A DNA stretch of 43,051 nucleotides from a virus, in IMG/VR virus record IMGVR_UViG_3300045921_000174, positions 1 through 43,051 of that record; one strand, 5' to 3'. The notes below the pieces were generated by a model. That model was not told the DNA's origin. It searched no databases and saw only the letters and a program-made list of their open reading frames with translations. The position numbers and the translations under genes are program-made. Numbering within the stretch: the stretch's first letter is position 1; the number at the start of each line of letters is the position of its first letter. This document shows positions 5,251-37,026 of the stretch, piece by piece.

Positions 5251-6269
5251 ATGAAGTCCTTCGCTGAATTCATCACAGAGAGCGCCGCGCCGCTGACCGT
5301 TGCTCAGTTTCCGATTCTTGCTTCGACCGCTCCGGGAGTGAAGCGGTTAGACCGAATCATCGTCGCGATCAACAAGGCGATAGCCGACAACGCCATTCCG
5401 AATGCACGATTCCTAAGGACATACTGTCGTGGTCCTACCATGCCGATGTGGATTTCTTCCAGCCAAATCACGCGGCGGGCAAGCTGAAGCTGACACAGAA
5501 GATTCTCAAGAACGACCCCAACAACGAACATGCGAAGAAATACGTCGAGTACGTCATGGAAGTCGTCACATTGCACGCGGCCTTGGAAAAGGTCAAAGCA
5601 TTATCCGTGAAGCGTCAGCCCGCGCCGGTGGTTGATCCCCGGAAGCAATACATCGCGCCGATGGCATCGAAGGACGCCGGGCGGAAGGTGATCGCTGTTC
5701 TCACCGAACTGACCGAACAGATCAAAGTCGAGTACATCAAGCTGGTGTACGACCGCATCGCGGACATCCTTCAGAAGTACTTCTCCCTCAAAGACGATCC
5801 GAAGGGCTTGCGGGAATTCTCCCGGTACAACCCGGAAATCAATCGCTGGTCTTGGTACGTGTTTGAGAAGAAACCGAACGGCGATCCGGTCGCGTTCTTG
5901 TCTGGATGGGAAAAGTACGTCCAAAAGGAAGCTGACACCGCCGGGGAGTTCATGCAGCAACAGTTCCTCTTCAAGAACGCCAAGAAGCTGGCGAAGATCG
6001 TGGAACTCAAGGACAACCTTCTGGACTGCAAAATCATCGGTCGCGCTCATGTGATGCAACAGGGAATCGGTGGCGAAATCGCCTTTACCTTCACCGATGG
6101 TTCGAAATTCGTGGTACGGAACAGCGTGAAGGACAACCGGTCGAGTGCCGGGAAGTGGTTCTCTCAATTTCCCACGACGTTCCACAACGTCATTATGCCG
6201 GACGGCAAGCCGATGGGTTCGCCTTCTGAACAGCGGATGATCGAAGTGTTCGCAGTGACGAAGGCTTAG
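5251..6269 (+). CDS. capsid-targeted protein (frame-disrupted), function unknown
   Basis: Opens with MKSFAEFITESAAPLTVAQF, a near-canonical T4 capsid targeting sequence. The first frame is plausible through IADNAIPNA (about 5405) and then stops at 5487. The other frame supplies IPKDILSWSYHADVDFFQPN and continues without stops to 6269. One base appears to be missing near 5408-5412. The restored protein has about 339 residues: mostly helical, with charged segments, a WSWYVFEKKPNG strand pair and a C-terminal beta region. No enzymatic motif is recognised. Predicted internal head protein. Confidence 0.75.
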
Positions 6270-20238: not shown

Positions 20239-20793
20239 ATGAAAAGTTTTCTCGAATACACTGTGTCGATGATCGGGGCAAAGGCAAGAGTGCTTCTAAA
20301 CGAAGACTATCCTTCACGACCGGCATATGGGAAACAGTGATGACAGTAAGTCGGAATTCTTGGTCTGGCGCATTGGTGCCAGCAATGAATCCGATCTGAA
20401 CAATCGCAACGCTGGTGACCTATTGGGAATCGCTAAATTCTTCGGTAGCGATAATGCGGAGTTTGGGCAAACCGGCGACCATCTGTTTGTGTATCAGGTC
20501 AGCAACCAAACAAAGAAATTCGGAACGTATCAGTTCTTCCGGCGCAATTCGTCAGAATCAGCCAGCACGATGATTGGGCGAAAAACGGAACCGATCAAAT
20601 GGGGACTCAGCGTTGATAGAGTTCGATGGTACTCGTTTCCAGCGAACGGAGACTGGTCAGCCAAACTGGTCAAAAAGTTCCTTTGTCGGTCTGCGAAGCC
20701 CGCGCGAAAGAATTTGGAACGTATGTCGGGGCCGATGAACCGATGGACGCGGTACTGTTTTACGAAGCCGCCACGAACAAAAAACTCTTATAG
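20239..20793 (+). CDS. capsid-targeted-like protein (two frame disruptions)
   Basis: Starts two bases after the gp6 stop with MKSFLEYTVSMIGAKARVLL, a weaker capsid targeting sequence. The first frame stops at 20338; NSDDSKSEFLVWRIGASNES continues in the +1 frame if one G of GGG (about 20328-20330) is dropped. A second break at the A5 run 20672-20676 is repaired by adding one A, giving VPLSVCEARAKEFGTYVGAD and a stop at 20793. The two repairs cancel, so the whole gene spans about 185 residues. The two halves are similar (QVSNQTKKFGTYQFF and CEARAKEFGTYVGADEPMDA), suggesting a short internal repeat. Function unknown. Confidence 0.6.
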
Positions 20794-20802
20794 GTGATAG
20801 GA

Positions 20803-21807
20803 ATGCTTTCTTTCTCTCAATTCATTCAGGAAAAGTTGATCGTCCTCAACGGCGGCGCACCCTACGGCCAGATCGTCTTTCTGGCGGGCGGCGGCGGGTC
20901 TGGTAAAGGATTCGCATCGGCGAATTTCATGGAAATCAACAAGTTCAAGGTCCGCGACGTGGATGCGATGAAATCTGCATTCCTTGAACTGAACCGCATA
21001 TACACAGAAATCAAAAAACTCCCCGACGACCCTGACACTGAACTGGCAGCATCGAGTCATGGACCGCTTTCACATACTTCCAAGTACCCATCCAACAAAC
21101 AAGTCGGACTTACGCACTATGGCGACCGTGCCACAAACCCCTATGCCATGTTGAAGAACATGAACCTTCGTAACCCCGGCGATGTGTTCAAACTCCACGA
21201 CTTTGTAGACTCTTTGGGCATCAAAGACAAAACTCTCTTGGCATTGATGCAAGCCGCGAAACAAGGAAGCGGTCATCTTCCAAACATTATCTTCGACATC
21301 ACAGCGAAAAACGTAAAGTCTATCGAGAAGGTCATCACCGGCGACGGTAAAATCCCCGGATTGATCGATATTGGTTACCAGCCGACCAGCATTCACCTGA
21401 TTTGGATCTTGGCCGATTACGCCGTAGCTGTGGAACGCAACTCCAAACGGTCCCGTGTGGTGCCGGACGACATCATGCTGACCACCCACGAAGGCGCGGC
21501 AACCACCATGTTTGATGTGTTGCGCGGCAAGATTCCACATGGCATGGACGGCGGCGTGTACGTCGTGCTCAACCGCGACCTGAAGCCGGAAGACATGAAC
21601 CAAAGCAAAAACACCGCCTCAACAAGCGCGGTGTCTAAGTTCAAGCCCTCTCCGGGCGTCAAGGATTTCACCTACATCCGGTATAAGGCTCCGGGTAAAG
21701 GCATCGAAGGCAAAGAAGAAATCCAGAAGCAAATCTACCAGTGGATCGTTCAGAACATCCCGAAGACCGCTGCGACCGCCCACATCTTCGACGCGGGTAA
21801 GATTTAG
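20803..21807 (+). CDS. capsid-targeted P-loop kinase, zeta-toxin-like
   Basis: A 334-residue protein, intact. Residues 1-12 MLSFSQFIQEKL are a capsid targeting sequence. Then comes QIVFLAGGGGSGKGFA, a Walker A (29-36) of the polynucleotide kinase/zeta toxin type, a VRDVDAMKS segment, IIFDITAKNVKSI (Walker B-like) and NSKRSRVVPDDIMLTTHEGA, an Arg-rich lid as in zeta toxins and nucleotide kinases. Zeta toxins phosphorylate UDP-N-acetylglucosamine; other relatives act on RNA or proteins, so the substrate is open. If packaged, it would act in the host in the first moments of infection. Start chosen at 20803 with GGTGATAGGA upstream. Confidence 0.8.
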   Translation: MLSFSQFIQEKLIVLNGGAPYGQIVFLAGGGGSGKGFASANFMEINKFKVRDVDAMKSAFLELNRIYTEIKKLPDDPDTELAASSHGPLSHTSKYPSNKQVGLTHYGDRATNPYAMLKNMNLRNPGDVFKLHDFVDSLGIKDKTLLALMQAAKQGSGHLPNIIFDITAKNVKSIEKVITGDGKIPGLIDIGYQPTSIHLIWILADYAVAVERNSKRSRVVPDDIMLTTHEGAATTMFDVLRGKIPHGMDGGVYVVLNRDLKPEDMNQSKNTASTSAVSKFKPSPGVKDFTYIRYKAPGKGIEGKEEIQKQIYQWIVQNIPKTAATAHIFDAGKI

Positions 21808-29566: not shown

Positions 29567-30090
29567 ATGCTTTCCTTCGGAACATTCCTAGCAGAATCAC
29601 GGCTTTCGGTCAAGACTTCCGTGGGTTCGATCTCTTCGCGGTCATTCTCCAAATCGTTCAGAAGCTCGAAGCATTGGCTGAACACGACGCCCGGAAAGCA
29701 AACAGCATCGACATCGCCTTCTCCGATCTGATGTTCACGTCGAAGTATCAGATCAATGGTCCCCTTCCCAAGAGGGAACATTACGCCGAAGACATGCTTC
29801 TTCGATTGGTCCAAGAGATGTCGAAGATGAAACTGAATCTAGCCGAACCGAAGTCGTGGAACGTCAATCTCCGTGTCTACGATGACGGAGTGGATGAGTA
29901 CGACACGCACATCGTCTCCGGTGGCACCGCCGCACGGTGGGCCGAATCGACGGCCAACAAACTGGACCAGATTTTTTCGGTGACTCACACCGAACCAGAA
30001 ATCGGCTTCGCTGGTGTGATCGACGGAACCTTGGAAGAAGGCATCTTGAAATCCATCTTGGCGCACTACACCGACAAGTTCCGGTTCTAA
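29567..30090 (+). CDS. capsid-targeted protein (frame-disrupted)
   Basis: ATG 29567 begins MLSFGTFLAES, a capsid targeting sequence placed by a late promoter. Right after it the reading must move to the -1 frame (AFGQDFRGFDLFAVILQIVQ, then KLEALAEHDARKANSIDIAF) and ends at 30090; a G missing from CGGCT near 29601 explains it. The restored protein has about 174 residues, alpha/beta, with SKYQINGPLPKREHYAEDM and a closing IDGTLEEGILKSILAHYTDK. No enzymatic motif is seen. The 29674 ATG is the first in-frame start of the main part, but it would remove the targeting sequence. Confidence 0.7.
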
Positions 30091-36106: not shown

Positions 36107-36421
36107 TTAGAACGACGGCTTGAACACCGGAATCGTGTCCGGGTCGATTTCCCGGCCCGGCGAATAGGAATGATCCGTCCGGTAGTGATCCTTCTTGGTA
36201 TCGTTCTTCTTCGCGCCGAAGTTCGCGATCTTATGCAGCAACCCGCGCTTCTTCATCTTCACCACGACGACATGCGGTTTCTGTTTCAGGAAATTGGCCT
36301 TGGCGTCTTCTTCATTCTCACCCTTGGCGACTGCCATCATTTGATGGCTACTGCCTTCAGGCTTGTACGTTACGTCGTACTCTTTCTGTCCTTCGGTGAT
36401 GAACTGTTGATAGGTTTTCAT
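36107..36421 (-). CDS. capsid-targeted small basic protein (104 aa)
   Basis: Starts MKTYQQFITEGQKEYDVTYK; the first ten residues are almost the same as the capsid targeting sequence of T4 internal proteins (M-K-T-Y-Q-E-F-I). After the probable cleavage at ITE, the rest is basic (KMKKRGLLHKIANFGAKKND) and of a size like T4 IPI-IPIII. Hence a predicted internal head protein injected with the DNA. ATG 36421 lies in an ATGA overlap with the gene upstream; the 36430 start is rejected for that reason. Confidence 0.85.
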   Translation of the reverse strand: MKTYQQFITEGQKEYDVTYKPEGSSHQMMAVAKGENEEDAKANFLKQKPHVVVVKMKKRGLLHKIANFGAKKNDTKKDHYRTDHSYSPGREIDPDTIPVFKPSF

Positions 36422-37026
36422 TTGTGCCACGGTCCCGGCTTATGACCCGATTTTTTGAACATTGCTTCAGCGATCCGGCGCAAAAGAGATTCCAATCCCC
36501 CGATGTAGAAGTCCTCTTCGTGCCCTTCGTAGTATTCCGCTGTGTAAATGGAATCTTCGTCGTCGCCCCAATCAATTGCGTCTTCCGGCTTCGACACACC
36601 GGCGCGCTTCGCAGCGGTCACAATGTCCTGTGCCAGCTTCATCTTCGGAATCCCATGAATGTCCTTCATGTTGTTCCAGTTGCGCTTGGACAGTGCCGTC
36701 AGTTCCTTGTACTTCGCGACCCACCAGCTAGCTTGTTGTGGCGTCATGCCTTGCAAACCGGTTCCGCCGCACGGCAAACACTGCGAATAGTCCGGCATCA
36801 GACCAAGCCCATGACAAGTCGGGCACCCGCCCGGCTTCCACGACCGGCTCAACTCCGCTTCAACTTGATCGAAATTGATGCCGTGCGAAGCCGCAACACG
36901 CCGCCCGATTTTTTCGTTGTGTTGTCCATCAGGCGTTTTGTTGCCGTAGACGATCTTGTACTTGACCGCCGCGTCAACCATATCATGATGGATGGCTTCA
37001 TTCAGCCAGTTGCCGAAGGATTTCAT
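36418..37026 (-). CDS. capsid-targeted protein with DnaJ-type zinc motif
   Basis: A 202-residue protein beginning MKSFGNWLNEAIHHD, a capsid targeting sequence with W for F. Residues ~68-92 contain two C-x-x-C-x-G-x-G units (CPTCHGLG and CLPCGGTG), the DnaJ zinc-finger repeat, which binds protein or nucleic acid. The C-terminal half is charged and helical (DSIYTAEYYEGHEEDFYIGG). AAGGATCGACA gives a ribosome-binding site. It lies between the acidic protein gene and the basic one in a single late operon. Confidence 0.85.
   Translation of the reverse strand: MKSFGNWLNEAIHHDMVDAAVKYKIVYGNKTPDGQHNEKIGRRVAASHGINFDQVEAELSRSWKPGGCPTCHGLGLMPDYSQCLPCGGTGLQGMTPQQASWWVAKYKELTALSKRNWNNMKDIHGIPKMKLAQDIVTAAKRAGVSKPEDAIDWGDDEDSIYTAEYYEGHEEDFYIGGLESLLRRIAEAMFKKSGHKPGPWHK

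What the first reader, a model, noticed from the sequence alone, without database searches (positions are those of the whole stretch)
20803..21807. Zeta-toxin-like kinase fused to a capsid targeting sequence
The N-terminal targeting peptide is joined directly to a P-loop kinase domain (GGGGSGKG, NSKRSRVVPDD lid) of the zeta/nucleotide-kinase type. A kinase pre-loaded in the head and injected with the DNA would be a fast-acting effector, like T4 Alt but with different chemistry. I know of no described injected zeta-like effector.
Basis: partly seen in the sequence, partly recalled or inferred. Interest (0 to 1): 0.75.

Follow-up and report, generated by a model that had tools for sequence, protein, structure and literature searches.

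The report
Head-packaged zeta-like kinase of T4-like phages
Many T4-like phages, including this one, carry a kinase related to bacterial zeta toxins with a conserved removable N-terminal tag that should load it into the phage head, so it is probably injected with the DNA; the location is predicted rather than shown, and what it phosphorylates is unknown.

Summary
ORF 20803-21807 (+, 334 aa) starts MLSFSQFIQE, matching the T4 IPIII capsid targeting sequence at the four positions studied by mutation (4, 7, 8, 10), followed directly by a P-loop kinase. It belongs to phrog_5268 ("unknown function"), found in 258 phage records and at least 402 IMG/VR loci. In 63 distinct homologues the leader varies from 9 to 44 residues but always ends in (L/I)xE before K/R, the T4 gp21 cleavage motif; AlphaFold leaves the leader disordered. 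A relative lacking the window protein's insertion folds closest to zeta toxins, then AvrRxo1 and polynucleotide kinase. Every complete genome tested with the kinase also has a gp21-type protease; nine complete Straboviridae genomes with it lack Alt. A nucleotidase-type HAD phosphatase is fused or nearby in several lineages. The zeta-like, head-targeted reading is well supported; packaging, injection and substrate are inferred. Zeta-like kinases fused to phage MuF domains were described in 2017, so an injected zeta-like kinase is not new in principle. New here: the T4-type tag, its conservation, the Alt pattern, and a degenerate KVP40 copy that keeps the tag. No virion proteomics could be read.

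The parts
20792..20796 (+). AGGTG, Shine-Dalgarno-like stretch 6 nt before the ATG at 20803
   Evidence: sequence
20803..21807 (+). complete gene, 334 aa, 36.6 kDa, pI 9.2; member of phrog_5268
   Evidence: (E 6.6e-46)
20803..20832 (+). 10-residue capsid-targeting leader MLSFSQFIQE; predicted gp21-type cleavage after E10
   Evidence: in register with T4 IPIII at positions 4, 7, 8 and 10 (PMC9026906); P1 Glu 63/63 and P3 Leu/Ile 63/63; pLDDT below 50 for residues 1-9
20833..21804 (+). predicted mature kinase, 324 aa, 35.4 kDa
   Evidence: inferred from the leader; AF2 models pTM 0.72 (window protein) and 0.78 (relative L064)
20887..20910 (+). Walker A P-loop GGGGSGKG (residues 29-36)
   Evidence: G29, G30, S33, G34, K35, G36 invariant in 63 sequences; intein-like insertion at this point in the Tenacibaculum phage PTm1 copy
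20956..20973 (+). DVDAMK (D52, D54, K57), likely catalytic base region
   Evidence: D52, D54, K57 invariant; the catalytic role is inferred from zeta/PNK kinases, not tested
21016..21150 (+). insertion around residues 72-116, mostly absent from the Straboviridae homologues and only partly shared by other relatives
   Evidence: alignment; low pLDDT, below 50 at residues 94-108
21439..21471 (+). lid segment NSKRSRVVPDD (residues 213-223); N213, R216, R218, V220 invariant
   Evidence: resembles the T4 PNK segment RNSKRGTKAVPID

Best explanation
This is a cargo enzyme of a T4-like head. It is made late with an N-terminal capsid-targeting leader that should dock it to the scaffold core. The gp21-type prohead protease should cut after (L/I)xE, freeing a zeta-like P-loop kinase inside the head, and the kinase should enter the host with the DNA. 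There it most likely phosphorylates a nucleotide-type small molecule (a UDP-sugar such as UDP-GlcNAc, NAD, or another nucleotide) in the first minutes of infection, as a takeover or counter-defence enzyme in the niche that Alt fills in T4. Shown here by computation: leader, conserved cleavage motif, zeta-like fold, active-site conservation, protease in the same genomes, genes next to structural genes in several lineages. Inferred: late expression, packaging, cleavage, injection, activity and substrate.
For: Leader ends in (L/I)xE before K/R in 63/63 distinct homologues while its length varies 9-44; background rate of (L/I)xE is 0.0056 per position. Leader disordered in both models. gp21-type protease (PF03420) in all 13 complete genomes tested that have a family hit. 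Zeta_toxin profile matched above cut-off over positions 13-173 of 199 by L064 and L035; by fold, epsilon/zeta, PezT and AvrRxo1 rank first for the L064 model (best E 1.3e-5, TM about 0.48). Gene in the baseplate module here and in many relatives, near hoc/inh in RB16-type phages, near gene 24 in KVP40. KVP40.0065 keeps a CTS-like leader although its P-loop is gone. Alt profile (phrog_802) absent from 9 complete Straboviridae genomes with the kinase: RB16, RB43, KP27, 65, CC2, AP1, Mm5, Phynn, POP12.
Against: No virion proteomics for a family member could be read. The window protein itself falls below the Pfam cut-off, and its own model ranks a polynucleotide kinase first. TM-scores below 0.5 leave the substrate open. 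The Alt pattern rests on few clades and is not strict: LPCS28 and VmeM32 have both, and KVP40 has Alt with a degenerate copy. The 63 sequences are related, so the leader counts are not independent.
Confidence: 0.62

Rival explanations
1. It is a head-packaged nucleic-acid end-repair kinase (PNK-like), working with the neighbouring HAD phosphatase on RNA or DNA ends at entry.
For: The window model's best PDB match is C. thermocellum polynucleotide kinase (E 3e-4); the lid resembles T4 PNK RNSKRGTKAVPID; an NT5C-type HAD phosphatase is fused to the kinase in L018/L023, overlaps its start codon in L089, and lies at or near the next gene in RB16, RB43, KP27, Mm5, Phynn, POP12 and VmeM32.
Against: All nine complete Straboviridae genomes with an intact kinase that were tested, and KVP40, encode a separate T4-type Pnkp elsewhere. 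The phosphatase matches NT5C, a nucleotidase family. The better model ranks zeta toxins and AvrRxo1 above PNK. The position of T4 PNK R122 is not conserved in the family (comparison; residue role recalled from the literature).
Confidence: 0.15
2. It is an injected true zeta enzyme: a UDP-GlcNAc kinase that blocks peptidoglycan precursor synthesis. (A narrower form of the best explanation.)
For: The top fold match is the epsilon/zeta structure bound to its substrate (3q8x); Iyer et al. 2017 propose this role for MuF-fused zeta kinases (PMC5512222).
Against: UDP-GlcNAc-binding residues were not tested. No Epsilon_antitox match in 20 records, though a lytic phage need not carry one. Early wall arrest could shorten the infection. 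The HAD partner points to nucleotides.
Confidence: 0.2
3. The leader is not a targeting tag: the conserved Glu belongs to the kinase fold and the enzyme works in the cytoplasm late in infection.
For: A leader pattern alone gives false hits, for example T4 uvsW.1; no virion data.
Against: Leader disordered in both models; length varies while (L/I)xE stays fixed; other unrelated proteins in related loci carry the same leader type; KVP40 keeps the leader without the P-loop.
Confidence: 0.1
4. It is a head assembly or scaffold-core protein whose kinase fold is vestigial.
For: T4 IPIII affects head assembly (PMC9026906); KVP40 has lost the P-loop; some records annotate a 'head morphogenesis protein'.
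Against: P-loop, DxD..K and lid residues invariant in 63 sequences; intein-like insertion in the P-loop in PTm1.
Confidence: 0.06

Closest known systems
T4 internal head proteins IPII and IPIII with the capsid targeting sequence
   Same: about 10-residue N-terminal leader, aromatic at 4 and 7, (L/I)xE at the end, loaded into the core, cut by gp21 (PMC9026906)
   Different: the cargo is an enzyme with a conserved active site, present across many lineages
T4 Alt (injected ADP-ribosyltransferase)
   Same: enzyme cargo with a gp21-cut leader (ITE-6, PMC5694885), enters the host with the DNA
   Different: different chemistry and fold; Alt is undetected in nine kinase-bearing genomes
Zeta toxins (epsilon/zeta, PezT)
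   Same: closest fold for the insertion-free relative; Pfam Zeta_toxin matched by members
   Different: no Epsilon_antitox match, head-targeting leader, substrate not known
AvrRxo1, a zeta-fold type III effector of Xanthomonas
   Same: zeta-like fold, delivered effector
   Different: delivered by a bacterium into plants; NAD kinase activity is recalled knowledge and was not tested here
Zeta-like kinases fused to phage MuF domains (Iyer et al. 2017, PMC5512222)
   Same: zeta-like kinase predicted to be packaged and injected
   Different: carried by a MuF head domain, not by a short cleavable T4-type leader
T4 Pnkp (pseT)
   Same: P-loop kinase with a similar lid motif, linked to a HAD phosphatase
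   Different: separate protein present in the same genomes, no leader

Membership tests
T4-type CTS internal head proteins | leader with aromatic 4 and 7, hydrophobic 8 and Glu 10 | tested here: met
   MLSFSQFIQE against PMC9026906
T4-type CTS internal head proteins | gp21 cleavage motif (L/I)xE conserved | tested here: met
   63/63 homologues
T4-type CTS internal head proteins | gp21-type protease in the same genome | tested here: met
   PF03420 in 17 of 20 records; the three without are contigs of 47-56 kb. Met for relatives; not tested for the 43-kb window record itself
T4-type CTS internal head proteins | present and processed in virions | not testable with these tools
   no readable virion data; supplementary tables not available
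Pfam Zeta_toxin (PF06414) | profile score above cut-off | tested here: inconclusive
   window protein 11.2 bits against 22.3; L064 26.1, L035 28.1, RB16 30.7
Zeta toxins | zeta fold | tested here: met
   top Foldseek matches for the relative L064, TM below 0.5; the window's own model ranks a PNK first
Zeta toxins | epsilon-type antitoxin partner | tested here: not met
   0 of 20 records, PF08998
Zeta toxins | UDP-GlcNAc kinase activity | not testable with these tools
   needs an assay
T4 Pnkp | kinase and 3'-phosphatase in one protein acting on nucleic-acid ends | tested here: not met
   no phosphatase domain in the window protein and no HAD homologue found in the window; NT5C-type partner in relatives; separate Pnkp in the same genomes

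The most novel reading that the evidence does not exclude
A widespread injected arm of T4-like phages: a zeta-like small-molecule kinase, often paired with a nucleotidase-type HAD phosphatase, that stands in for Alt and blocks a nucleotide-based host defence or host function before any phage gene is expressed.
Probability: 0.2. Interest if true: 0.8.

Novelty: new variant of a known kind. Interest (0 to 1): 0.55.

Why it matters
Injected proteins act before any phage gene is expressed. A head-tagged kinase conserved across Enterobacteriaceae, Aeromonas, Vibrio and environmental T4-like phages, yet filed as 'unknown function', would give a testable candidate for what phages without Alt deliver, and its leader motif offers a simple way to find other cargo. 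RB16, RB43 and Lw1 grow on laboratory E. coli, so the prediction can be checked directly.

Tried and rejected
PDB sequence searches with the profiles gave nothing significant. hhalign against T4 PNK aligned only the P-loop region. The idea that the kinase replaces Pnkp was weakened by finding Pnkp in the same genomes. The ORF at 20327-20797 was first taken for a gp53 homologue; neither PHROGs nor tblastn supports that. Paper searches for virion proteomics of RB43, KP15, Slopekvirus and KVP40-like phages gave no readable list with this protein; virion tables exist in supplements for Atu_ph07 (PMC6102473) and Schizotequatrovirus 6E351A (PMC12028318) but could not be opened. Zeta toxin sequences were not fetched for a residue comparison.

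Full report
Observation. The ORF at 20803-21807 encodes 334 aa. It begins MLSFSQFIQE and runs directly into a P-loop kinase (GGGGSGKG at residues 29-36, NSKRSRVVPDD at 213-223). In T4 IPIII (MKTYQEFIAE) mutational work placed targeting mainly at residues 4 and 7 and processing at 8 and 10, with gp21 cutting after L/I-x-E (PMC9026906). The window leader matches at all four. Five ORFs in the window have such a leader, against 0 to 0.075 expected from shuffles. A scan of T4 recovers IPII and IPIII but also uvsW.1 and others, so a leader on its own is not proof.

Family. The protein belongs to phrog_5268, unknown function. tblastn with the window protein finds 207 phage records, and with the RB16 homologue 258, mostly Straboviridae. 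In IMG/VR at least 402 loci encode a relative. GenBank names vary: hypothetical, zeta toxin, adenylate kinase, polynucleotide kinase, head morphogenesis.

Leader. In 63 distinct window and IMG/VR sequences P1 is Glu in 63, P3 is Leu or Ile in 63, P1' is Lys or Arg in 63, while the leader is 9 to 44 residues long; the background rate of (L/I)xE is 0.0056 per position. RB16, KP27, Aeromonas 65 and others show the same layout. AlphaFold leaves residues 1-9 disordered in both models. Unrelated proteins in the same loci carry similar leaders. KVP40.0065 keeps a leader (MLGNFDSFLSE) although its P-loop is gone. The protease that would cut the leader is present in every complete genome tested that has a family hit.

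Fold. The window model (pLDDT 77) ranks C. thermocellum PNK first. The window protein has a low-confidence insertion at about 72-116, so the relative L064 was folded as well (pLDDT 80, pTM 0.78); its top matches are epsilon/zeta and PezT, then AvrRxo1, then PNK. All 63 members match Pfam Zeta_toxin at E of 1 or better, best 2.4e-10, and several exceed the curated cut-off; the window protein does not. Active-site positions are invariant. The intein-like insertion in the PTm1 copy sits in the P-loop.

Context. Here the gene follows baseplate wedge genes. In IMG/VR loci the gene just upstream belongs to one recurring cluster in 35 of 84 cases, and gp25-, gp6- and gp5-like genes recur nearby. In RB16-type phages it lies near hoc and inh, in KVP40 near gene 24. 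That suggests late expression but does not show it. A HAD phosphatase of the NT5C nucleotidase type is fused to it in L018 and L023 (NT5C match for L018), overlaps its start codon in L089, and is adjacent or near in RB16, RB43, KP27, Mm5, Phynn, POP12 and VmeM32. The complete Straboviridae genomes tested also have their own Pnkp, which speaks against a simple end-repair role. Alt is not detected by profile in nine complete genomes with the kinase, but LPCS28 and VmeM32 have both and T4 has Alt without the kinase.

Reading. Best supported: a capsid-targeted zeta-like kinase, loaded, cut and injected, acting early on a nucleotide-type small molecule. The leader, motif and fold are computed results. 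Packaging, cleavage, injection, activity and substrate are inferences.

Novelty. The searches made here showed no paper that links this family to a T4-type leader; the library holds only open-licence papers.

Noticed in passing
window 5251-5487 (+), 29567-29731 (+), 36421-37026 (-), 36110-36421 (-): Four further ORFs start with a CTS-like leader (MKSFAEFITE, MLSFGTFLAE, MKSFGNWLNE, MKTYQQFITE); the last two lie end to end on the minus strand.
   Followed up: partly
L008 (Tenacibaculum phage PTm1) 3801-5642: The homologue is interrupted by an intein-like insertion inside the Walker A loop (GGAG | C...SGN | SGKG).
   Followed up: partly
L018 198-1580; L023 7001-8383; L089 6462-6947: Kinase fused to an NT5C-type HAD phosphatase in two loci; in L089 the phosphatase stop overlaps the kinase start (ATGA).
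   Followed up: partly
L098 4992-6437 and 6446-7093 (KVP40): KVP40.0065 keeps a CTS-like leader but lacks a P-loop; the next gene KVP40.0066 also begins with one (MKQFCNFLAE).
   Followed up: partly
L097 3221-5557 (Atu_ph07): 778-aa protein with a zeta-like kinase domain (Zeta_toxin 54 bits) after a region that looks ADP-ribosyltransferase-like by eye; start MKWNDLNE.
   Followed up: no
L073 1825-3072 and 4102-5424: Other leader-bearing proteins in related loci: a DUF6267 protein and a cytidylyltransferase-like protein.
   Followed up: no
L118 (RB16 101028, +): A second RB16 ORF with a CTS-like leader, 261 aa, MKSFKELLSES, function unknown.
   Followed up: no
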